DNA of 64,000 bases, from the NCBI GenBank assembly GCA_030068145.1, contig JAPJBO010000109.1, positions 1 through 64,000 of the forward strand. Reading direction: 5' to 3'. Below, in pieces: positions 51,246 to 63,898 of this stretch. The DNA is from Diplonema papillatum (Eukaryota; Euglenozoa; Diplonemea; Diplonemida; Diplonemidae). The notes below the pieces were generated by a model. That model did no database searches and was not told where the DNA came from. It saw nothing but the letters and a program-made list of their open reading frames with translations. Numbering within the stretch: position 1 is the stretch's first letter; every line of letters begins with the position of its first letter. A program made the translations under genes and the position numbers.

Positions 51246-51962
51246 CTAGGGAGTCCTCGTTTGGCTCATTCGCATGTTCCGTTCGAATACACTTTTCATG
51301 TGCACGCCTGATCTCCGTCGCAGAGCAGTGTAGCCCGTGATGGCACCGAAGATGGCTCCTCCCAAGCATCCCCACTGGTGGATAAGTGGGTGGCTTTTGT
51401 CCAGTGGCTCAAGCTTCGGCATGACGTACTCGTTCACCACCCGCTCGGCCACGATCAACGAGGCCACAGGCCACGCTGGGATGAAGCTCCTCTTCGAAAG
51501 GGAGAACGTGGACGGCCCCGCTAGCAGGCAGCCACTGAGGCCGCAGATCGCGCCAGAGGAACCAGCGTTTCGGTCGTACTTCGTGGCCAGTCTGTCCGGG
51601 TTCAGGTGGCACTGCAGCTTCCAGGTAATAGTGCTGGCGGCACCCCCGGCGAGGTACACCAACACCGCAAATGTAGTGCCAAACTCTCTTGCTACTGGGA
51701 ACAGCACCACCCCGAGCTCAGCCGAGTTGCGCAAGTAGTCAACCCAGTTGCTCGTAACGAAGCACCCGGAGAGCAGGACGGGCAGGTACAAGTCGTTCCA
51801 CCGCGCGAACGCATTGTCGCCGAAAAAGACGGGCTTGTTGTACCTCAGGTAGTCAGGGCTGCGCTCGTAGCCGACACCCAGGGCGAACGATGTCCCGATG
51901 GCCGCGATGGATATTGCGTAGAAACTGACGCAGTGAGAGGCCGCATTGGCGTGTGGACTCAT
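51246..51962 (-). CDS. Rhomboid-family intramembrane serine protease
   Basis: A single-exon frame of 238 residues from ATG at 51962. Hydrophobic segments at about 10-32, 58-78, 84-114, 132-152, 160-180 and 196-214 give six membrane helices. The catalytic Ser lies in 'NAGSSGAICGLSG' (GxSG, Ser136) and the catalytic His in 'HQWGCLGGAIFG' (His195, H-x2-G-x3-G), the order and spacing of the rhomboid dyad. Rhomboids cut single-pass membrane proteins within the bilayer, in the secretory pathway or mitochondria. The short N-terminus without an obvious transit peptide leaves location open. The length is that of a minimal rhomboid. Confidence 0.85.
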   Translation of the reverse strand: MSPHANAASHCVSFYAISIAAIGTSFALGVGYERSPDYLRYNKPVFFGDNAFARWNDLYLPVLLSGCFVTSNWVDYLRNSAELGVVLFPVAREFGTTFAVLVYLAGGAASTITWKLQCHLNPDRLATKYDRNAGSSGAICGLSGCLLAGPSTFSLSKRSFIPAWPVASLIVAERVVNEYVMPKLEPLDKSHPLIHQWGCLGGAIFGAITGYTALRRRSGVHMKSVFERNMRMSQTRTP

Positions 51963-53654
51963 GAGCCTCGCCCCCCTTCAGTTCCCCTTTCTTCAACTGG
52001 TTTAGTTTTCTAGCCTCACAGCACACAAAGGATGGATTGCTTGTAGTGCCGTTACACGAGACGGGTTTTCGTCTGTACTTTTAGTTTTTTTGAGGCTGGA
52101 ATATGGAACCCAAGCCAAAAAGTTTGAGAATAGGTCGAGGAATAGATTTCCGAAATGCCTCCAATCATTCGCTTTACCTGGTGTAACTCCTGTTTTGGTT
52201 CTAGCTATCCTGACGAGCCGCAAACCCTCGATGCACGACGTACCTGCTGATCTTGACAAGACGCGAAGGCAAAGAAAGGGCAGGTACAAGTAAGTCTTTG
52301 TGTGAGCTGCTTCTTCCCTGGCAATGCCTTAGAACTCCTAAACTGGCAAAAGGACCGAGCAGGAACTGAACACGAAGAGGAAGTGTAGGAGGGGGTGGGC
52401 ATGAAAAAGGAGTAGGAAACCCGCAAAAAAACAGCCGAAGGCAAGCACAGGGGGAACCTTTTGCACGGTTGTGCCTCTTATTCTCACGCCAAGACAAGAA
52501 ATAGCAGCAAAGCGGGGAAAGTGGCAACAAGCGACAGGCACTCCCTTGTTGCATACTAACACTGTTGAAAACTCAGTTTCTTGTAGGGGGGGGGGCAGTA
52601 TCAACGGAGCACAGGGCTAGACTCAAGGGTTTCCATAAATATTAAGCTCTTTGAGCTACGAGGGCAGAGGCCCATCCGTCGCGGGGAAAAGGCACCTACG
52701 TCTGAGCAATCGGCCATTCTGACCTGGGACTTTGACTTGTCGAATTGAATGTTCGTGTGAATGCTTGGCGGCAGGGGGGGGAAACTACGGTATGCTCGAT
52801 ATCACGGGTGTGTGCACAGGTGCTGTGCGATTATAAGGGAGGTCGACGAGCAAGGCCTGGTCGGGTATCATATGGGAGGTCGACGAGCAGGGCCTGGTGG
52901 GGTATCACTACAGTGATCACAGCATCGACGCGTCACAAAAAATTGCGTAGTTTTGTTGTAGAATGCACGAGCGCGGGCGGGAGGCTCGATGCAATGGTCA
53001 ACATGGGAAGTTTGTGCTATGGTCACAAAGCATAGCAGAGAAAGTGTGTGGGGACGGCAACAGGAAATGTGCATGAAAGACAAGATGGTGCTTGCAGTCC
53101 AAGTGCGCTGTGCCATTCTCCTTATGTTCCCCCGTTATGCATTTATTTTTTGATGCATCGCGTTCACAGGAGGCAGCTTTTTTGAAAGCCAACTTGGTTT
53201 CCGGGCCCCTGCGGACTCCTCCCCCCTTCTAGTTGCTCTCAGATTCTCTTGAGGGTCTGCTGGACCTCGTTGGACCCTGAGGTTCCGGAAGGCTGGCGGA
53301 CAACGCTTGATGTCGTTCTTAAATCTCTGCCGACTTTTTGTTGTTGTTTGCTTGTTTTCTTTTTTGTTGTTGCTGTTTCCTGCTCTCCCTTATCGTCGAA
53401 CGATCACCCTTTCTTTCTCGAGGCACTTACAGGTTGCCGTTGTATCATCGTTGAAGCGAATTCGGTTCTAATTACGAAAAGCCCGGGCTCATGGCGAGTA
53501 CTAGCTGACAAACCCACAGTCAAGGGAACGAGAACTGCCAGCCAGCGTTCGGTTGAGACTCCATGGTCTCATTTGTGCAGTAACACGAGACGAGCGCAGC
53601 CCCGCGCGTGGAGAGGTGGCCACTCTCCCACCCACGGTTACACTGTTCAAGCGT
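51963..53654. other. Intergenic region; 36-bp tandem duplication
   Basis: 1.7 kb between the rhomboid start and the 3' end of the WY/WW gene. It has a tandem pair at ~52838-52911 ('gggaggtcgacgagcaaggc' and a near-copy) and a G9 run near 52590. No supported gene. Confidence 0.5.
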
Positions 53655-53747
53655 TCAGAAAATGTCTTCGTCTTCCTCGTCTTCTTCCCACATTGTATCC
53701 TGCTCTTCAAACGCGGCTTCAAGTTCTGCTTCAAGGTCTTCATCGTC
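53655..53747 (-). CDS. WY/WW gene exon i (terminal)
   Basis: 93 bp. Acceptor TCAAAACACAG, phase 0. It encodes an acidic C-terminus ('DDEDLEAELEAAFEEQ' ending 'DEDIF') with stop TGA. Its composition continues that of exon h, which supports the join. A LINE-A-like 3' end lies ~60 bp upstream in the intron. Confidence 0.75.
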   Translation of the reverse strand, partial: DDEDLEAELEAAFEEQDTMWEEDEEDEDIF

Positions 53748-56700
53748 CTGTGTTTTGAGACGTCGTTGGGTCAGGGTAGTGTCGGGCAACTTCAGGCGGA
53801 TAGAAGTCGCGTAGACGAGTTAAAATGCAGGGACAACCCGGTGGCCGCAAGTCGTTCCGTTGGAGGCGTGTTGTGGCCGGCGGTCCTGACACGGTGGATG
53901 GTGGGCAACAGCAGAGGCATCCTGATAGGCGGGCAAGTTCGGAGACAGGCGCTTTGCTATGCTGCGGGTGCTCTCTTGTCCACCGCGAACCCTCTCTTGC
54001 TACAAAAAAAGGTGTCGAGAAGTCGGTCAACGCAATGGTGGTCAGTGTCCACATTGTGTATATTTCCCCTCCTCTTTGCTATTCTCCCGTTCCTGGGAGA
54101 GCAGGATCCGGCCGGGACGGCAGCGACATCCCCTGGCCAAGAGCAAATGCCGGGACATGCTGCATGGAGCCGAGCTCTGCAGAGCCATGGTACGGATCAT
54201 GTGGTTATTACCAAAAACGTGTTGACGAAAAGTGAAGGGTTGCTTGTTGCGAGGCAAGGGTCACCACCCATCAACCTCCATATGACCCTCTGCTCGCATC
54301 CGCCCGAGAGATGGAGGGGGTTCTGCAAGATCCGACTGGTTCAAAGAAACGTAGCCACGCACACACGCCTTCGGACGGTATTGGTGAACTGCGCACCGTA
54401 AAACCACATGAAAACACGTACCTGATGCTCATTGTCTCCGTCATCTTCCTCTTCCTCCTCTTCTTCCTCCTCTTCCTCATCGGCGGCGTCCTCGTCATCT
54501 TCGTCGTTCCATGCCTTGTCCTCTTCCTGCATGGCCTCCTCTGCATTATCGGGTTCTTCCTCTTCTTCAATCCTCTCGTCTTCGGGCTGCATTTCTTCAT
54601 CGCCAGGCGCTTCCCAATCCGGGTCGTCTGGGTCGTCGTCTTCGTTGACGAACTTCTCCCCCGAGAATGGCGTTTCGTCAGTCAGCTTTTCGCCCAAAAA
54701 CGGATCTTCGGTCATCATCTTCTCTCCGGAGAAGGGATCCTCGTTGGTGAGCTTCTCGCCCAGGAAGAGGTTGCCGTCGGGAATCTTTTCGCCCACAAAC
54801 GGCTCTTGGTCTTTGAGCTTTTCTCCAAGGAATGGGGTCTGGTCCTCAATCTTCTCTCCCTCGAACGGTTCGTCGAGCTTCTCGCCTACAAACGGTTCCA
54901 GCACCTGGTTGTTTTTGAGCTTCCTTCAACATTTTTGAACAAGCACAGGCAGCCAGTTTTTTCGATCAGAATTTCGATTTCATCTTTTCCTGCTTGGTGA
55001 GTAACCTGACCCAACAGCATATCAGCACAAAAGCCCTGGTAACCACCTGCTTTGTAGGAAATATCAGAAGTGTTTGTCGTTGGGACGCGTTTGGGCAGGA
55101 TTCGGTCTGAGTGAGTAACCTGACTCATGCAGCTAATTGCACCTAGCCCGTGACTTGGGAGCCTTTGTTTCCCGTGACTGTAGGCCAGATTGCACACCTT
55201 GCGATAGAAGTCCATGCGGTCAGCCACCTGCTGCGGTGTCGCTTCGGGAACTTCTTCTTGCTCGGGAGCGGCGGCAGCGCGCTTCCAACTCTGCGTGTCG
55301 GCTGGTTCAGCTGCCGGTTCTTTTGCCGCTTTCTTGAACTCCTCGATGTGCTTCGGCGCCTTCCACCAGTTGTCTTTCATCCATTTCTCCCTCTCCGGGA
55401 TCTCTTCCGGCTTCGCGTCGCGCTTCCAGTCGTCTCCGCCGTTTTGGAAGTCTTCAACCATATCCGGGCGCTTCCACTTTTCGTCTTCGATGGCAGCTTG
55501 CCTTTCAGGCGCCTTGGCGTTCCTGAACCACTTCTCTCTCTCGGCGAGTTGCTCTTCGGTGGCTTCAGGTGTGTCATCGTCGTCAATGGGTGCCCCTTCT
55601 TCGTCTTCCTCCGGACGCGCTGCTTTCTTCCAGTTGTCGCCCATCTCGCCGTCCCGCCTCCATTCTGTGTGTTTTGATTCGGTTCGCGCTTCTGTTCTCA
55701 CCGCCAATCTCTGGTGGTCCCACCGCCAATCTCTGGTGGTCCCCCCGCCAATCTCTGGTGGTCCCACCGCCACTCTGGTTGTGCGGAAAGCTTTTTTCTA
55801 CTCGATCGCAATGATCAGATGCCCTCTTCCCTCTTGGTGTCGCAAGTCCACAAGAGACGGATGCTGTGCAGACGAGGAGGCAAGACGAGAAAAACCTTGA
55901 GCTGCAATCAAAAAAGAATACCGCCAGAAAATGCAAAAATCCTGCTCCTCTCGAAAAAAAAGCTGTCGCAGGCGACTGCTTGTTAGGCCTGCTAGTTCCG
56001 TTTCCAGCTGCACAGCTAAGCTAATGGTACAGGTACGGACGTCTCTCAAGTATTTCGGATCTGCCGCGATGCTCTGCGCTTTGCAGTGGAATTGATCAGG
56101 CAGTTGGAGTTTATTGGTGGGATGGTAACTTCGACATTGTGGTGTAGTTCTTCTTTCTCAATGCCCACAGGAGGGGGGTGCTCACCGTGGAAAACAAAGC
56201 GGACCTGTCGAGTACTTCGGGTCCTTCCACCAGTTGTCCCTGTACCAGTCCTCTCGCTTCTTAGCGTCGGCGTCCGAGCAGGGTTTCCTGCCGGTCTCCT
56301 CCTCCTTCCGCCACAGCGCGTCCGGGTCTTCTGGGTTCCGGTGGAAGTTCTCGACGACGTCTGGTCGCTTCCACCACTCGGTCTGCTCCGGGTCTCTGTA
56401 CTTGCGCTGCCAGTTCTCCGGCCTCTTCTTCTGCTCTTCCTCTGCGTCCAAGGCCAGGTACGCAAGTTCTTCCTCTTGGCGGCCCATCTCTTCTTTTTCC
56501 TGATCGACCTTCTCCTCTTCGGCCTGCATTTCGAGCTCGTCCTTGTCTGGCGCGATGTAGAAGTTTGTGTCCGCAACTGCGCGAAAGAACTCCTCTCGGG
56601 TGATCGGCTCCTCTTCGTCGTCGGCGACACCGCGTTTACTGCCGGAGGCGTCGTCGAAGTCGTCTTTTTGGCCGTCTCTGTTCTTTTGAATCGCGTCTCG

Positions 56701-59406
56701 GATGGCTTGAACCTGCGTTTTGCGCGTATTCTCACTTGTTTCCGGGTGCTTGATAGACAGTGACAAATGTCTTCACATCGCAAGAGGTAGAAAAATGATT
56801 TAACTGAACGACCAGGCTCTCAAGAGGATACAACAACGCTCTCGCCACGGTATGATTTTGAATGACTCTGACCGATGGATGTTACACAATCATTGGGGAG
56901 GCATACCTGCTTTTCCGTCGGCGGCTGGCCTTCGTTGATTGCGGTGAGCGCATCGGCAAGCTCGTCAGCCTGAATCCGCTTGTCCTTGGCGCCTCTCTCC
57001 CTCAGCCAGTCCATTCTCCTGCCTTTGTCATCGTCCGACAACTGTCCCCTGTACCAGTCTTCCCTCTTCAGCAACTGCGCACCCGAGGGTTCGACAGGAT
57101 GCTTCCTGTACCAAGCCTCACGCTTGTCTTTCTCGTCTGGCGCCGCGGGACTGCCCATGTTCTGCTTGTACCACGCGTCCCTCTTCTTTGCTTCATCCGG
57201 GGAAGCACCGTCCTTCCATGCCCCGGACGACTGTGGCCCTTTTGCCCAGTCTTCGACGATCTTCGGCGCCTTCCACGCGTTGTCTTTGTACCAGTCTTCC
57301 CGCTTTTTCTTCTGCTGTGTAGAGGCTGGGTTGGTGTGGCCCAGCCCCAGCGCGCCTGCAGTCGAACTCGCAGCGGTCCACTTCTTGCCGCTGGGCCCGG
57401 ACTCTTGATAGTCAGCGATGAACTCAGGCCTCTTCCACCAGCCGTCAGAGTCGCCGTGTTTCCGGTACCAGTCCTCACGCTTGTCCTTCTCCGGTTGCGC
57501 GACTGTCGGGTTGCATTAAATATAGCTGACAAAGCAATAAATGCGCCAAAATCTAGTACGCAAGAGCTTACTCAGAATTGTGTCGGAAACTAGTTGCTGG
57601 TCAAGTTGTGCCAGGAACTAGATTGTTGGAGTAAACACGGCCACTTGTGGTTCAGAACTTCGTCTTCACTGCATCCGGAATAGAATGCATACCGAAATCT
57701 TTGTCCCCTTGCTGGTTGCGGGAGGCGTCCGGCGTTGCCGCAGGCCACCTTTTGTCGCCTGCCTTGGCCCAGTCGTCGGAGCACGTCGGTGCCTTCCACC
57801 AGTTGTCGCGGTACCACTTTTCCCGCTTGTCCTTCTCCGGGTCTTCAGCCGGCTTTTTGTGACCCATGCCGCTGGCCGCAGCCAGAGGGTCTGCCGCCGT
57901 CCACATTTTGCCGTCGCGGTCGTTGTTGAGCCAGTCTTCGATGTACTCAGGCTTCTTCCACCACCCATCGCCGATAGTTTCGGGGTCCGTTCGGTCCATT
58001 TGCAGCGGCCGCTCTCTGCCGCACTCGGGCCCACTTTTGCCGTGCTTTTTCCAGTCGTCGTAGCAGTGCGGGGTCTTCCACCAGTTGTCCTTGTACCAGG
58101 CCTCGCGCTGCTTCTTCTCACCCTCCGGGCAGGGGTGCTCTTTGCCGCCCGACCGGTTGGCATTCCCCCGGGCGTCCGCCGTCCACATGTTCCCGTCCGG
58201 GCCGTTCTGGCCCCAGTCTTCGCAGTACTGCGGCTCCTGCCACCACTCGTTGTCGGCGTTGTTCCGGTACCAGTCGTCGCGCTTCTGCTTCTCCTCGGCG
58301 GCGCACGGGTCGCCGTCCGCGTTGCCCGCTTTGCCCGACGGCTCGCAGCCTGCCGGCCACTTTTTGCCGGATCCCTTGTTCGTCTTCCAGTCCTCCACAT
58401 ACTCGGGCGCCTTCCACCAGTTCGTGCGGTACCACTCGTCCCGGCTGAGCGCATCGGCTGAGGTGCACGGGTTCTCTGCCGCTTTCCCCGCGAACCCAAG
58501 CTCCTCACCGCAGGCCCGCCACATGTCGCCGATGGGCTTGTAGAACGCAACCCGCCCCCTTGCTTCCTTGTCGGTGCACGGCTCTTTCGACGCGCCAATT
58601 TTCGGGTCCTCGGCGCTGGCCTTGCTGGCGGCCCGCCACATTTCGCCCTTCGGACCGTGCTTTGCCCAGTCCATTGCACATCTGGGAGCCCTCCACCAGT
58701 TGTCGGCGTACCACCTGTTTTATATGGCGATATTTGCAATAGATTTGTATTAGATCACTCGAAGACTTCAATAAAACCCCGGATCCTCAAGCTTTCACTC
58801 TAAAAAGGATGGCCCGACGTGTCTCAACTTCAAGCGGTAGTGCATTTCCGCACTGTCTGACTGGGCGGGCCCGTTCAGGGTGTACTTCGCGTCTGCTTCC
58901 AGTTCAGACCAGCTTGTCTGACACCCTGATGCTTTCAGAAGCAACCCATCGTCGAAAGCGTCCCGTTGTGCACGTTTATTACAAGCTACCGGTACATGTT
59001 ATAGTCCGATGGACATTATCATGTGAGATGTCCCCGTTGGGCATTTCCCATTGGGACTAGTCCCAAACTTTTTACCTTTTTTGCTTTTATCAAAAAGAAG
59101 AAGAATCCTGTTGCCCCGTCGACTATTTACTTGATGCACCCGCCATCACACAAGCACGACGGGGAAACGGACTACAACTCCTGGAACATGGAGCAAAATT
59201 CAGGTTTAATAACATGGCAAGAGGCATGACGTGGAAAGAAGGAGGGTGTGGGGACGAGACTAAAGTTAGTGTCGTCAAACAAAACCGAGAACGGGACGCT
59301 GCTACAAGGTCGTCAAACAAAACCGAGAACGGGACGCTGCTACAAGGCGAGGACCCTCCCAGAATCCGAGAATGCCGAATACTGGCAGCCTCGTTTATTT
59401 TGAAAA

Positions 59407-59500
<94 letters not shown>

Positions 59501-62500
59501 GAGTTAGAGTGCAGGGACCATCTCTCCGAGGAGTATCCGGTCGCCCCACTACTATCCCGTACTACTACGGCGGGCGCAAGTCGTTGCGCCGTGGGCGCGG
59601 AGCGAGCCGTGGCCCTGTCAAAGATGATTGTTGCACCGATGGTGGCGCAGCCGGGGGCGTTCTGACTGGCGGACGAGACCGCCTGGCAGGCGTGTGTTGA
59701 CACGTTGTTTCGCGGGCTCTCCTCCTTTTGGCAATAGCCCGCCCTATGGCGGCGGCTAGCATCTTGACAGAGAATCTCAACTCCCACTGAACATAGGGTA
59801 CTTCGTGCGGATATTCAGGCACGGCATCGTTCCAGCTGTTACGGGCGCAAATTGTTTCCAGCTTGCCCAACATCCACTCGGTCTTCCGTCCAGCCGCAAA
59901 GCGTGGGCGGTGGGTACAACCCGGCATAGCCGGCGCACCAAAACAGCGGAGGGAACAGACCCCCTGCCGCCACTTCCCAGGGAAGGAGGCGACTCCTGAG
60001 TCGGCGCAGCACAGGTCGTTGATAGCTCGCATAAGGTACCCAATTTGCAGCCCCTTCTCGGCGAAGGTTCTCCCTGGGAGCTTCGAACGCGTAAATGCCT
60101 CAAAATCAAGCGCGAGTTCCACGCCTGTCGTCGGGAGAGGGTTGGAGCTGACCCACGATAGACTCCGCAGCCAGAAGACCAACGTCGCTGCGAAGCGGGT
60201 TCCGATGTTGGTCGTTAGCAACTTACGACTGTCCGTTGCTAAGTGTACGTCGTATTTCGTCGACGCACCTGAGGCGAGTTCCCAAGGGCGTGTTGCCGCA
60301 AGGCTCCGCTGCGCCTGCGCCATCTCGATTGAGATCGTACCGATCAGCCTCTGGATCTTCTCCAGGAGGTCAGGAGGGGTCCCGTAGGGGGGTATCCCTC
60401 TAATGCACAAGCACTGGGGCATGTCCCGGACCATCGCCTCAGCAATGCAAAACCTGGATCGCAGCTCGTTCCATCTACAACCTGGGCCCGGACATTGCCA
60501 GTAGTAATGCCACAGGGTCCCCGTCGCACCGATGTCGCAGAACTCGCAGTCGCCGCTCCCCGAACCCCACTTCCTGCGGCACCATTCCCGTGAGTACACC
60601 GCTCCCCCAATACATCGACTGATCGCGGAACTCAATTTGTGGTCCGTCGCGCGGTTCGCAGCAAAAATGATTTAAAGCGGTGAACCAGATACACGAGTAG
60701 TAACACGGGCCAAGGCAAGGGCCAGCCCGCGTCGACCGAAGAATATTATCCGGTATCAGTGGCACTGCTCAGTGAAAGAGCGTCCGTTCAGATATGTGCC
60801 TGGTACTTATGAGGTACCAATACGGGCTTCTGGGGCCTGTGTAAAATAGCTGCTGTTGGCATGAGTACGAAGACCCAGCCGACGACAGGCGTGTATTGAC
60901 GGCTTGTTATCGATGGAATCGGGAGAAAGCTCAACAACGACGGACGCAAGCCACAAAGCACCCACTGCCACCGACTAATACAGGCTTCTATGAGGCTCTT
61001 GGTTACGTTCATCACAAGCGCAGTTAGAACTGCAAGCTGAAAGCTTGACCATCCTGTGCACACGCATTTTCTGCAGAGTAGAGCGTCTTTCATGTCGGAG
61101 TGGGGCACGATCTGCTGATCTTGCAAACCTGTAAATCACTTTGTCATGGCATCATGATAGCGAAAGGAGACCAGCTATCTGATAATTCTCGGCGACGTCG
61201 AAGAACCCGGGCGAGAGCAGCAGCTCAAGCCCCTCGCATCATCTCGGAGTGGCAGCGGTCGCGAAGCGAGTCAGAGTTGGAAAAGGTAGCATTCTGGGAA
61301 GAATGGCGGATTTTCGACGGAATGCGCGGAATAGGACAAGGGTAGGATGCGCTGTGACCAGCGGTCAGCTCTGGCAGCGTATGAGATGCGGTCACCCGAT
61401 CACGGGAAAGAGCTGCATCTCGCATGTCCGCACACACCGAGTTGAATTGGGCCGAGAAGAAAGGGAACTGCCGTCCAGAGGTGCAAAGATCATTGTTTGC
61501 AACATGAATTGTGAAAGAGCATCGTACAGCGACAAAGAAGAGGAAGAGCCCCTCATTCGTGCGCTTCGAGCAGGGGAACTGGGCTCGGGAGAGAATCTTA
61601 GTGTGGGGGAGGAGTCAAAAAGGAACAAACCTCTGTCTGTAGTCTTTGTCATCAGCGGTACACGGGTTCTTGATTCCGGTGCCTTCGATGCCCGCTGTTT
61701 CGGTAGCGGCAGGCCATTTGCGACCTTTGGGACCGTGCAGCTGGTAGTCTTCCACGTACTCGGGTTGTTTCCACCATTCTTGGCCTTGAGGCTGCGATTT
61801 TGGCTTCATTGTGCGCTGCCAGTTGTCGATGAACGCCGGCTGCTTCCACCATTCTTTGTCGTGGTTCTGATCGTCGCCCTTCCCAGTCCACGCCGCACCG
61901 AGGGGCCCTGTTTTTGTACTTTTCCTGGAAAAGGGGGCCTCAACACAAAACCAGCAAGGCACAGAATAGGGTCGTCTCGTTGTTGCATGTTCTGTGTTTT
62001 GCCGTCTCCTGCTGGTATCGACCTCGGTGCAGAAAGGTGAAGGTCGTGTGTTTGCCACTATTCCACTCGAAGGCAACGAGCAAGGAGAAGTCTGAGGAGA
62101 GAAGCCATGCTTGCAGTTCGGGACTTACGGATTTTTTCGAGGGGGGTTTTGCCCCCTTCCTCTTCGTTCCGACCTTTGGAACAAATTTCTTCTTCCATCG
62201 TCGCGCAAACACTTACCTAGACCTGGAGGGGTGAAAGAACATACCGTTCTTCCAGAAGTCGTCAGTGTACTTCGGCTGCTTCCACCAGTTGGACCTGTAC
62301 CAGTCCTCACGTTTTCCCTGCTCGTCTCTGGTAGCCGGATTTTCTAGCGCGCGGCCACCCATTCCATCGTCTTTCGTTCTCGCGGGCCAATGTCTGCCTT
62401 CCGGGCCCTTCTGGAAGTAGTCTTCGATAAATCGGGGGGCCTTCCACCACTCGTCGTCGTCGTTTTTGTACCACTCCTCGCGCTTGCGCCTCTCGTCGTC

Positions 62501-63898
62501 CCCCACCGGCTTCGGGTACCCGCCCTTCTTCGCTTCTTCCTCGGTCGGCGCACGCCACTTCGTGTTTCCCGTGCGGCCGTTCTTCTTCCAGTCATCCTTG
62601 TACTCGGGCTGCTTCCACCAGTTGTTCTTGTACCACGCCTCCCTTCGGTCTTTTTCGAGGTCCGGCGCTGGTTTTTGGTCGCCGGCTTTGTCGACCGCCG
62701 CGGCTTCGTTGACCGCCGTCCACTGCCTTCCTTTCGGTCCTGCGTTATTTTGTACGTTGAAGTATGGTGACAGGTACCATCAAAATGAAAATACAGGACT
62801 TTAAATTCGGGGGCTTTGAAAGGTTGAGACCCCGAAATGGAAATACAGGACGTAAGCTCGGGGGGGTAAACTCAGGGCCGCCCACGTGATGAAGCCGTTA
62901 CGCAGCGGCGGCCGGCTTATCCCGTGAACACCCTTGTGAAGTGAAACGCGATGGGTTCGAGGTTGGAACGCAAAGGATCTGTGGCGACGGACTGCATTAG
63001 CCGCTCGAGAGAGTAGCTTCTCGAACGCGCCAGGTCATGGATTCCGGCTCGCTCGCCTCGTCGCCCCTTCGCGCGGCCGCTTGGAGCCTGTACTTGCGAC
63101 CGACCGTGATAGACGGCGGCAGCCCATGCGAAGCTCCAGGGGACAGAGATGGACCTGATAGACCGTTGGTGCTCGTGCTACCTACACCAGTGCGATGCAG
63201 GTCCAGGAGATAGGCGTGGACCGCCTCAAGCACAGTGAACGCATGCACTGGAGAAACCGCCAGCACCCACCGCGGGTCAGCGGTAATTTGTAATGGGCAA
63301 GATGGGGTGCGAGGCTGCTGATGCCGCCGTAGTGCGTGGATTATCACGCGAAGAGGATTGCCTTCGTCGTGCCGCAGCGGAAAACGACAACTCAAAACGA
63401 ACAAATGTCAAATTCGTGTTTGCTATTCTTCCATAGTGGGCTTCAGGACATAGAAAGCTAAGATAATCAAAGTTGCTGACGCTGTGTGCGGCTGGACTTC
63501 TTCAGCACTACTCAATCATGACAATTGGTAAAGGAGGGGCATACCATTCTTGAAGAAGTCGCTTCTGTAGGGCTCCTGCTTCCACCAGTCGGAGTCGAGT
63601 GGCTTGGCGGCAAAAGTGAGCGCATCGCAATCCAGGCCCCGGTCCTTGAAGTCCTCCCTGGCCCCGTCGGTCTTCCACCAGTCGCCGTTTCTGTAGTACT
63701 CTTCTCGGGCGTGCTTTTCGGGCACGGAGCATTTCTCCGGGTCCCCTTCTGTCGCTGCATTCCACTTCTTCACAACACCGCGGGGGCCATTCGCTTTGTA
63801 CCAGTCTTCCCGATGTCGCGCTTCTTCTGGAGAACACGGGTACCGTGTCCCTTCTCCTTCGAGACCTGACTCTTCGTCAGCAGCCGTCCAGCGTGCAC
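53655..63898 (-). CDS. WY/WW-repeat protein, nine exons in window, 5' end beyond the window (gene span)
   Basis: Exons: 63545-63898, 62245-62739, 61631-61907, 57693-58714, 56907-57502, 56205-56712, 55198-55664, 54422-54904, 53655-53747. All junctions are GT-AG and every donor phase equals the next acceptor phase (1,1,2,1,0,1,0,0), giving one frame of ~1,430 residues to TGA at 53655. The first exon starts in phase 1, so more lies upstream. The protein is ~20 repeats of about 45-60 residues: a charged helix-like 'DKxKREDWYR', then 'NWWKAPxYxxDW', then 'KxGPxGxxWxA', then a linker often with 'PC'. I count 17 WW pairs. Near the end come a Glu-rich segment, eight 'PFxGEK' repeats and a very acidic tail. 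No catalytic domain or membrane segment is seen. The family is not recognised; a Trp-rich structural or binding role is a guess. Confidence 0.8.
53805..53960 (-). mobile_element. Diverged LINE-A 3' fragment in WY/WW last intron
   Basis: 'gacgagttaaaatgcaggga' and the coding end 'RNDLRPP' followed by 'GCPCILTRL' match LINE-A tails ('RNDLRPP' and 'GPCTLTRL' at 59.55 kb), but without a (GA)n run. Old copy. Confidence 0.6.
54422..54904 (-). CDS. WY/WW gene exon h (PFxGEK repeats and acidic region)
   Basis: 483 bp, phase 0-0. Acceptor AAACAACCAG, donor CATCAG-GTACGT (strong). It encodes eight copies of an ~11-residue repeat (EPFVGEKLD, TPFLGEKLK, DPFSGEKMM and so on), then ~80 residues that are mostly Glu and Asp, including a run of about 11 Glu. 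Confidence 0.85.
55198..55664 (-). CDS. WY/WW gene exon g
   Basis: 467 bp, phase 1 in, phase 0 out. Acceptor AAACACACAG, donor CGCAAG-GTGTGC. Diverged repeats: 'EKWFRNAKAPERQ', 'EKWKRPDMVEDFQNGGDDW', 'EKWMKDNWWKAPKHIEEF', then 'DRMDFYRK'. Richer in Pro, Glu and Ala than the earlier exons. Confidence 0.8.
55690..55785. repeat. Four ~20-bp repeats in WY/WW intron
   Basis: 'caccgccaatctctggtggt' in four near-copies starting 26 bp upstream (in gene sense) of the exon g acceptor. Each unit has inverted ends (accgcc...ggtggt) that could pair in the pre-mRNA. Confidence 0.75.
56205..56712 (-). CDS. WY/WW gene exon f
   Basis: 508 bp, phase 0 in, phase 1 out. Acceptor GCAAAACGCAG, donor ACAG-GTCCGC (weak). 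It begins with 'VQAIRDAIQKNRDGQKDDF' and 'PITREEFFRAVADTNF', EF-hand-like in pattern, then a Glu-rich helix. It then resumes repeats: 'TEWWKRPDVVENF', 'WYRDNWWKDPKY'. Confidence 0.8.
56907..57502 (-). CDS. WY/WW gene exon e
   Basis: 596 bp, phase 1 in, phase 0 out. Acceptor CAACCCGACAG, donor AAGCAG-GTATGC. The repeats shorten: 'REDWYRKHGDSDGWWKRP', 'REDWYKDNAWKAPKIVEDW', then bare 'RDAWYKQN', 'REAWYRKH', 'REDWYRGQ'. The end ('RIQADELADALTAINEG') resembles an EF-hand helix and continues into exon f. Confidence 0.8.
57693..58714 (-). CDS. WY/WW gene exon d (largest)
   Basis: 1,022 bp, phase 2 in, phase 1 out. Acceptor ATATAAAACAG, donor TTCG-GTATGC. It holds six WW repeats ('WYADNWWRAPRC', 'WYRTNWWKAPEY', 'NEWWQEPQYCEDW', 'WYKDNWWKTPHCYDDW', 'DGWWKKPEYIEDW', 'WYRDNWWKAPTCSDDW') and one degenerate one. 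Extra Cys occur after the P position (PRC, PQYC, PHC, PTC), hinting at metal or disulfide use in this block only. Confidence 0.85.
58715..59273. other. WY/WW intron c-d, part without element
   Basis: No gene seen. This is the downstream part of the 2.9-kb intron that holds LINE-A2. Confidence 0.5.
59274..59350. repeat. 38-bp tandem duplication
   Basis: 'gtcgtcaaacaaaaccgaga' plus 'acgggacgctgctacaag' occurs twice head to tail, close to the 3' end of LINE-A2. Confidence 0.85.
59416..60662 (-). mobile_element. LINE-A2, 5'-truncated copy with (GA)n tail
   Basis: Flanked by 'aaaaatga' at 59408-59415 and 60663-60670, a likely target duplication. On the minus strand it carries the C-terminal domain of the LINE-A family and a 3' end identical in plan to the 38.1-kb copy. 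The (GA)n tail is ~85 bp long (59413-59499). It lies inside the WY/WW gene intron, in the same direction as the gene. Confidence 0.85.
59565..60635 (-). CDS. LINE-A2 C-terminal domain ORF
   Basis: 356 residues, open. It begins at 'AISRCIGGAVYSREWCRRKW', has the finger 'CEFCDIGATGTLWHYYWQC', then 'IGTISIEMAQAQRSLAATRP' and 'ELALDFEAFTRSKLPG', and ends 'RNDLRPP' at TAG. It lacks endonuclease and reverse transcriptase, so it cannot move by itself. Confidence 0.8.
   Translation of the reverse strand: MSSAISRCIGGAVYSREWCRRKWGSGSGDCEFCDIGATGTLWHYYWQCPGPGCRWNELRSRFCIAEAMVRDMPQCLCIRGIPPYGTPPDLLEKIQRLIGTISIEMAQAQRSLAATRPWELASGASTKYDVHLATDSRKLLTTNIGTRFAATLVFWLRSLSWVSSNPLPTTGVELALDFEAFTRSKLPGRTFAEKGLQIGYLMRAINDLCCADSGVASFPGKWRQGVCSLRCFGAPAMPGCTHRPRFAAGRKTEWMLGKLETICARNSWNDAVPEYPHEVPYVQWELRFSVKMLAAAIGRAIAKRRRARETTCQHTPARRSRPPVRTPPAAPPSVQQSSLTGPRLAPRPRRNDLRPP
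60671..61630. other. WY/WW intron c-d, upstream part
   Basis: No gene supported. A plus-strand open frame over 61249-62040 runs antisense through exon c and is a shadow. Confidence 0.5.
61631..61907 (-). CDS. WY/WW gene exon c
   Basis: 277 bp, phase 1 in, phase 2 out. Acceptor ACAAAAACAG, donor AGAG-GTTTGT. Two repeats: 'KEWWKQPAFIDNWQ' and 'QEWWKQPEYVEDYQ', then 'NPCTADDKDYRQ'. The next exon supplies the missing '(R)WYADNWWRAP', so this intron, which now holds a LINE, cuts inside a repeat. Confidence 0.8.
62245..62739 (-). CDS. WY/WW gene exon b
   Basis: 495 bp, phase 1-1. Acceptor AATAACGCAG, donor AACG-GTATGT. Three repeats: 'WYKNNWWKQPEYKDDW', 'WYKNDDDEWWKAPRFIEDY', 'WYRSNWWKQPKYTDDF'. 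It begins '(G)PKGRQWTA' and ends 'FWKNG', so the intron falls at the same place in the repeat as for exon a. Confidence 0.85.
62860..62932. repeat. Uninterrupted palindromic element (hairpin)
   Basis: 'cccacgtgat' and 'aagccgttacgcagcggc' face 'ggccggcttatcccgtg', so the element can fold back (CACG.GATAAGCCG against CGGCTTATC.CGTG). The same element at 34.13-36.52 kb is split by LINE-C. It lies in the WY/WW intron between exons a and b. Confidence 0.7.
62933..63544. other. WY/WW intron a-b, remainder
   Basis: A minus-strand open frame (62997-63404, ~135 codons) has no recognised domain and no splice agreement with its neighbours, so it is not called. Confidence 0.4.
63545..63898 (-). CDS. 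WY/WW gene exon a (5'-most visible)
   Basis: 354 bp, phase 1-1. Acceptor CTTTCCTTCACAG, donor AATG-GTATGC. It encodes diverged repeats: 'HREDWYKANGPRGVVKKW', 'YYRNGDWWKTDGAREDF', 'DSDWWKQEPYRSDFFKNG'. Confidence 0.8.

What the first reader, a model, noticed from the sequence alone, without database searches (positions are those of the whole stretch)
53655..63898. Unrecognised family: a >1,430-residue protein of ~20 'WY...WWK.P' aromatic repeats
Seen: nine exons join in one frame with matching phases. They encode repeats with invariant Trp-Tyr, Trp-Trp-Lys-x-Pro, Asp-Trp/Phe and G-P-x-G-x-x-W positions, 17 WW pairs in all. I know of no named domain with this signature. Dense, regularly placed aromatics with charged linkers suggest a stacking or multivalent binding scaffold. 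The function is inference only.
Basis: partly seen in the sequence, partly recalled or inferred. Interest (0 to 1): 0.9.

Follow-up and report, generated by a model that had tools for sequence, protein, structure and literature searches.

The report
Tryptophan-repeat scaffold of euglenozoan phosphatases
The window holds most of a real gene for a giant protein built of some twenty tryptophan-rich repeats, an enzyme-free sibling of large lipid-phosphatase proteins found in diplonemids, bodonids and some trypanosomes; the repeat has no name and no known fold match, so it is a new domain family to study.

Summary
A public Diplonema papillatum protein (1,732 aa, "putative Unc104-like kinesin") maps exactly onto them plus one exon outside the window. 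"Unrecognised family" is half right. The ~54-residue repeat matched no Pfam or NCBIfam family, PDB sequence or PDB fold at a meaningful score, yet the protein belongs to an existing group. An intron-poor paralog on contig C79 continues into a PH-like domain and a SHIP-type inositol 5-phosphatase. 28 of 38 proteins collected carry the phosphatase; named sources are D. papillatum, Bodo saltans and Trypanosoma cruzi, rangeli, conorhini and grayi. No kinesin motor was found, so that name looks wrong. The window copy stops 30 residues into the phosphatase exon; none of 23 genome matches to that exon lies on its contig. Best reading: an enzyme-free scaffold paralog in a SHIP-like phosphatase family. 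A link to the cytostome-cytopharynx feeding apparatus rests only on species distribution and is tentative.

The parts
63545..63898 (-). exon 2 (exon 1 is at contig C109 65683-66586, outside the window)
   Evidence: exact mapping of annotated protein P0008, GT-AG
62245..62739 (-). exon 3, repeat units
61631..61907 (-). exon 4, repeat units
57693..58714 (-). exon 5, longest repeat exon; segments folded
   Evidence: 65% identity to the C79 paralog over 320 residues
56907..57502 (-). exon 6, last units of the main array and start of the EF-hand-like region
56205..56712 (-). exon 7, EF-hand-like region and further repeats
55198..55664 (-). exon 8, last repeats
54422..54904 (-). exon 9, 'PF.GEK' motifs and Asp/Glu-rich tail; ends at EHQ|gt, the intron site shared with the C79 paralog
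53655..53747 (-). exon 10, 30 acidic residues resembling the start of the paralog's phosphatase exon, then stop TGA
56491..57071 (-). EF-hand-like (degenerate) region, residues 1162-1290 of P0008, split by an intron
   Evidence: profile search of the PDB: the best rows are troponin C and calmodulin, best E 0.011; coordinates

Best explanation
The gene encodes an enzyme-free scaffold: a paralog of a large euglenozoan SHIP-like inositol 5-phosphatase that kept the N-terminal domain, some 22 tryptophan-rich repeats, a degenerate EF-hand-like region and an acidic tail, but lacks the PH-like and phosphatase part. Shown: exon structure; homology to full-length members with conserved phosphatase motifs; an end 30 residues into the stretch matching the phosphatase exon; no match to the phosphatase on its contig; protein-level constraint between the two copies. 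Inferred: each ~54-residue unit folds as two main helices and a short third, and the units chain into a long scaffold. In full-length relatives the scaffold would place the phosphatase on membranes where PI(3,4,5)P3 or PI(4,5)P2 is converted. The truncated copy would occupy the same assembly without enzyme, as a structural partner or competitor. Tentative: the assembly belongs to the cytostome-cytopharynx feeding apparatus.
For: Exact exon mapping. Paralog on C79: a first exon of 1,796 codons, a 255-base intron at the same EHQ site and phase, then the phosphatase exon. Phosphatase exon: PF22669 E 1.7e-56 and PF25404 PH_29 E 2.1e-39; best PDB relatives SHIP1/SHIP2, E 1e-46 to 1e-45; a SHIP second-C2-like end in T. 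cruzi just under the Pfam cut-off. PF22669 and PF25404 are listed for 28 of 38 proteins; all 28 have SEH.PV and 27 GD.NY. Window copy versus C79: 62.9% aa identity over 1,705 codons, dN 0.29, dS 1.42 (near saturation), eight of nine blocks with dN/dS 0.11-0.27, the last with saturated dS. Repeat order: 21 of 22 units of P0008 score higher against P0002 (same species), and likewise against P0009, than against any sister unit. Model of just under three repeats: pLDDT 86.9. None of 23 genome matches to the phosphatase exon lies on C109.
Against: No localisation, interaction or activity data were seen; the supplementary tables of the P. papillatum subcellular proteome, which might place these proteins, could not be opened. 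Inter-repeat geometry is unsure (pTM 0.34 for 338 aa, 0.52 for 149 aa). Against Bodo and T. cruzi only 5 and 4 of 22 units keep a cross-species best match. Feeding link: T. theileri-like trypanosomes have a cytostome complex (PMC13414494, passages) yet no row or 42 is named for T. theileri, Paratrypanosoma or a euglenid; and the lack of rows named for T. brucei or Leishmania rests on two capped, length-limited searches in which only 6 of 30 and 5 of 26 rows bear an organism name. The EF-hand-like loops look without calcium ligands, so calcium control is not claimed.
Confidence: 0.7

Rival explanations
1. Feeding-apparatus protein: the array is a building block of the cytostome-cytopharynx, and the phosphatase resets phosphoinositides on its membrane during uptake.
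For: Organism names are D. papillatum, Bodo saltans, T. cruzi, T. rangeli, T. conorhini and T. grayi, plus the labels Hpha, Rhum and PhM_4. Cytostome or cytopharynx seen in passages for T. cruzi and B. saltans, D. papillatum (PMC10161547 figure legend), another diplonemid (PMC10653844), and clone PhM-4 = Papus ankaliazontas, a predator with a reinforced cytopharynx (PMC7859406; that PhM_4 means this clone is my reading); for T. conorhini only as a title in a reference list. T. rangeli and T. grayi were not checked one by one. T. brucei and Leishmania abandoned the structure (PMC6978632) and are named in neither list. The T. cruzi cytostome protein CP1 has orthologs only in T. theileri, T. rangeli and T. 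grayi.
Against: No experiment; no row named for T. theileri, Paratrypanosoma (both reported with a cytopharynx) or euglenids; the lists are length-limited and mostly unnamed; D. papillatum and others share much else besides feeding.
Confidence: 0.3
2. Flagellar or paraflagellar-rod structural protein.
For: Large, repetitive, lineage-specific proteins are common there (recalled).
Against: Rod-bearing T. brucei and Leishmania have no named row; a T. brucei rod interaction paper has 0 occurrences of kinesin, phosphatase or unc104 in its main text (PMC2766642, term search only).
Confidence: 0.12
3. Unc104-like kinesin, as databases name it.
For: Name on the D. papillatum and four Trypanosoma proteins.
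Against: No kinesin motor in P0008 or P0029 by Pfam at E up to 1; the name may come from PH-domain similarity (inference).
Confidence: 0.01
4. The window copy is decaying toward a pseudogene, or its short end is an annotation error.
For: Truncated relative to C79; several other phosphatase-less proteins look like gene-model artefacts or fragments (P0006 reads into the EHQ intron; P0010, P0012, P0013, P0037 by their ends). Stop codons of P0009 and P0011 were not seen.
Against: Ten open exons, dN/dS about 0.2 against C79 (the ratio cannot say which copy is constrained); P0009 and P0011 end 29 and 30 residues after the EHQ site, as P0008 does at 30; no phosphatase match on C109.
Confidence: 0.1

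Closest known systems
SHIP1/SHIP2 (INPP5D/INPPL1) inositol 5-phosphatases
   Same: The C79 paralog shares the 5-phosphatase domain (E about 1e-46) and has a PH-like domain before it; T. cruzi has a second-C2-like end (26.4 bits, cut-off 27.5).
   Different: No SH2 domain in the Pfam scans; a giant Trp-repeat array instead. The window protein itself has no phosphatase.
'putative Unc104-like kinesin' (Trypanosoma, Diplonema) and 'inositol 5-phosphatase 1, putative' (Bodo saltans)
   Same: These are the database names of this family.
   Different: The kinesin name looks wrong; the repeats were not found described in the Pfam, NCBIfam, PDB or paper searches made here.
WW domain (PF00397, accession and fold recalled)
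   Same: Trp positions and a Pro, by name only.
   Different: No Pfam match; predicted fold is helical, not a three-stranded sheet.

Membership tests
SHIP-type inositol 5-phosphatase (window protein) | 5-phosphatase catalytic domain | tested here: not met
   no Pfam family in P0008; none of 23 phosphatase matches on C109; tblastn of window and L011 gave only chance rows, best E 0.76
SHIP-type inositol 5-phosphatase (C79 paralog) | 5-phosphatase catalytic domain with conserved motifs | tested here: met
   PF22669 E 1.7e-56; its database version P0002 has GTFNM, FWMGDMNYR, APSYTDR, SEHKPV; role of the motifs recalled
SHIP-type inositol 5-phosphatase (C79 paralog) | PH-like domain before the phosphatase | tested here: met
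   PF25404 PH_29, 134.9 bits, cut-off 27
SHIP-type inositol 5-phosphatase (relatives) | C2 domain after the phosphatase | tested here: inconclusive
   PF24147 in T. cruzi 26.4 bits (cut-off 27.5), in Bodo 16.4; not listed for C79
SHIP1/2 proper | SH2 domain | tested here: not met
   no SH2 in Pfam scans of C79, P0015 and P0029
SHIP-type inositol 5-phosphatase | removal of the 5-phosphate from PI(3,4,5)P3 | not testable with these tools
   needs an enzyme assay
Unc104/kinesin-3 | kinesin motor domain | tested here: not met
   no match in P0008 or P0029
WW domain | match to the Pfam profile | tested here: not met
EF-hand | paired helix-loop-helix with calcium ligands | tested here: inconclusive
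   best PDB profile rows are troponin C and calmodulin but best E is 0.011; Pfam silent; ligands look lost by eye

The most novel reading that the evidence does not exclude
The Trp repeat is a new domain with a fold not represented in the PDB. It forms long structural elements of the ancestral euglenozoan feeding apparatus and carries a SHIP-like phosphatase directly on them, so that structure and phosphoinositide turnover are one molecule; enzyme-free paralogs such as the window gene tune how much phosphatase each structure holds.
Probability: 0.2. Interest if true: 0.85.

Novelty: new variant of a known kind. Interest (0 to 1): 0.6.

Why it matters
It points to a repeat domain that the profile libraries searched here lack, questions a kinesin label carried by diplonemid and Trypanosoma proteins, and ties the repeat to a SHIP-like lipid phosphatase. 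If the species pattern holds, it offers a candidate for the poorly known molecular make-up of the cytostome-cytopharynx, testable in Paradiplonema papillatum.

Tried and rejected
The short-query protein search found one relative because of its length limits; the full-length query solved this. Dinoflagellate spliced-leader search: 0 matches. Rfam on the window at gathering scores: 0. Two other places with paired pattern hits (C34, C61; L012, L013) showed no repeat protein. Viral and prokaryote contig scans: 516 and 64 pattern hits, none a relative. Foldseek: one row, E 5.9, for the 338-aa model; nothing for the 149-aa model in PDB or BFVD; VIA-align had nothing to add. Repeat profile against PDB sequences: one row, E 1.1. 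Phosphatase-less proteins as one clade: rejected for seven rows (AU p 0.0001) and for P0006+P0008+P0012 (p 0.0078), and for P0008+P0009+P0010+P0011 (p 0.0002); the groups were named after a first tree, rows of that first tree were dropped in both later ones (among them P0014, P0022, P0025, P0036 and P0038), and several rows are probably artefacts or fragments, so the number of losses stays open. Paper searches: 'Unc104-like kinesin' with Trypanosoma gave 0 papers; the listings showed no title or abstract start about this protein. Absence from print is claimed only for these searches of the open library; supplements were not open to me.
Full report
What is there. The window is C109:1-64000 of a 271-Mb eukaryote assembly. 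That protein maps letter for letter onto ten GT-AG exons: exon 1 outside the window (66586-65683) and exons 2-10 inside it, ending at the stop 53655. The genome paper reports a ~280-Mb assembly, mostly GT-AG introns, and automated gene models built with transcript data but with many inaccurate structures (PMC10161547, passages); no transcript of this gene was seen here.

The repeats. A profile built from 42 units of P0008 and P0002 has the consensus GEGDKKPAKDDEKKKREEWYKEDDEWWKAPEYIEDWKKNGKDGKKWTAATEEAG. It finds 28 matches in P0008 (24 at i-E<1e-3) and matches all 38 collected proteins. None of 1,000 shuffles of P0008 gives a match. Wholly in exons 2-10 lie 24 matches, 20 of them below 1e-3; 22 matches in the whole protein are at least 29 residues long and below 1e-3. 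Because P0008 and P0002 trained the profile, their counts are not independent; those in bodonid and trypanosome proteins are. Order: 21 of 22 units of P0008 score better against P0002 (same species), and again against P0009, than against any sister unit. Against Bodo (5 of 22), T. cruzi (4 of 22) and P0018 (8 of 22) few do, though rank order is still correlated (68, 18 and 36 of 5,000 permutations as high).

Fold. AlphaFold2 on 338 aa of exon 5 gave pLDDT 75.9, pTM 0.34; on 149 aa (just under three repeats) pLDDT 86.9, pTM 0.52, with helices of 14-17, 13 and 5 residues per unit. Foldseek found no PDB chain at E<=10 for the second model and one row at E 5.9 for the first. Pfam, NCBIfam and PDB sequence searches with the repeat or the protein gave nothing of weight. 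This supports an undescribed domain; it does not prove a new fold.

What it belongs to. An intron-poor paralog lies on C79. Its first exon encodes the same layout; the spliced alignment gave 62.6% identity over 1,758 residues. At the site EHQ|gt, where the window gene also has an intron, it has one of 255 bases. The next exon encodes an acidic stretch, a PH-like domain (PF25404, E 2.1e-39) and an inositol 5-phosphatase domain (PF22669, E 1.7e-56), closest in the PDB to SHIP1 and SHIP2. My two-exon model of the C79 gene ends in VRIF, whereas the database version P0002 ends differently and later, so there is probably a further intron after the phosphatase. T. cruzi and Bodo relatives have the same domain order, with a SHIP second-C2 match just under and well under the Pfam cut-off. 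Of 30 proteins, 23 list both Pfam domains; one search adds five more, making 28 of the 38 collected; all 28 carry SEH.PV and 27 GD.NY. No kinesin motor is present in P0008 or P0029.

The window copy lacks the enzyme. It ends 30 residues into the stretch matching the phosphatase exon. The window and L011 show no phosphatase by tblastn, and none of 23 genome matches to the exon lies on C109. It is not obviously decaying: against C79, dN 0.29, dS 1.42 over 1,705 codons, eight of nine blocks with dN/dS 0.11-0.27; dS is near saturation and infinite in the last, short block. P0009 and P0011 end 29 and 30 residues after the same site, but the array tree does not unite P0008 with the clade P0009-P0011 (AU p 0.0002). 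Whether this is repeated loss, conversion between paralogs or a shared termination device is unresolved. P0006 reads into the EHQ intron and is likely a gene-model artefact; P0010, P0012, P0013 and P0037 look like fragments.

Other members in the genome. A protein search with exon 5 listed 17 matches: C109, C79, and weak ones on C1040, C2874 and C383; such counts are lower bounds. The C1040 and C2874 open frames (1,215 and 1,094 aa) carry, by eye, the same type of N-terminal domain and a few degenerate repeats; they look alike over the shared stretch and may be one divergent third member held twice.

How it may work. Shown: homology, architecture, truncation, constraint. Inferred: the repeats form a long chain of helical units that serves as a scaffold; in full-length members it positions a SHIP-like phosphatase on a membrane; the window copy occupies the same structure without enzyme. 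The region after the array resembles an EF-hand pair (best PDB profile rows are troponin C and calmodulin, but best E is only 0.011), with calcium ligands apparently lost.

Where it may work. Organism names are D. papillatum, Bodo saltans, T. cruzi, T. rangeli, T. conorhini and T. grayi (6 of 30 and 5 of 26 rows), plus EukProt labels Hpha and Rhum (read by me, from memory, as Hemistasia and Rhynchopus) and PhM_4. Clone PhM-4 is Papus ankaliazontas, a predator with a long reinforced cytopharynx (PMC7859406 passages). A diplonemid with an elaborate cytopharynx is described in PMC10653844 (passages) and a cytopharynx of D. papillatum itself in PMC10161547 (figure legend). T. brucei and Leishmania abandoned the structure (PMC6978632 passages; PMC11110969 passages and legend) and have no named row. 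Against this: T. theileri-like trypanosomes possess the complex (PMC13414494 passages), as does Paratrypanosoma (PMC12718327 passages), and neither gave a named row; no row is named for a euglenid; the two searches were length-limited and capped. Five more papers were term-searched only and gave nothing on this protein (PMC2766642, PMC3008729, PMC3214021, PMC12697944, PMC7300353). The link is a lead at about 0.3.

Verdict. Observation confirmed; interpretation partly supported. Undescribed repeat domain in a known but apparently misnamed euglenozoan family of SHIP-like phosphatases; the window gene is an enzyme-free paralog.

Noticed in passing
L009/L010 (C79) versus window gene: Of the nine introns of the window gene the C79 paralog has only the last, at the same site and phase: large-scale intron loss (for example through a cDNA) or gain in one copy.
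   Followed up: partly
C79:77438-79348 (+): A second copy, 100% identical over 637 residues, of the phosphatase exon lies about 20 kb before the C79 one, without an array match beside it: recent local duplication or assembly duplicate.
   Followed up: no
L025 (C1040), L026 (C2874): Open frames of 1,215 and 1,094 aa with, by eye, the same N-terminal domain type and few degenerate repeats: perhaps a divergent third family member, held twice in the assembly.
   Followed up: partly
L024 (C383), open frame of 655 aa from base 2262: One clear repeat unit (i-E 7.8e-07) in an otherwise different protein.
   Followed up: no
P0031, P0035: Two relatives list LysM domains besides the phosphatase (LysM E 5.1e-28 in P0035), lying between repeat stretches.
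   Followed up: no
window 51246-51977 (-): Open frame with a Rhomboid domain (PF01694, E 5.1e-09).
   Followed up: no
window 59565-60671 (-), inside intron 4: 368-aa open frame that by eye resembles the end of a non-LTR retrotransposon protein; Pfam silent. A GA microsatellite lies nearby at about 59418-59505.
   Followed up: partly
C-terminal ends of P0008, P0009, P0011: All three stop 29-30 residues after the EHQ site although the array tree does not group them.
   Followed up: partly
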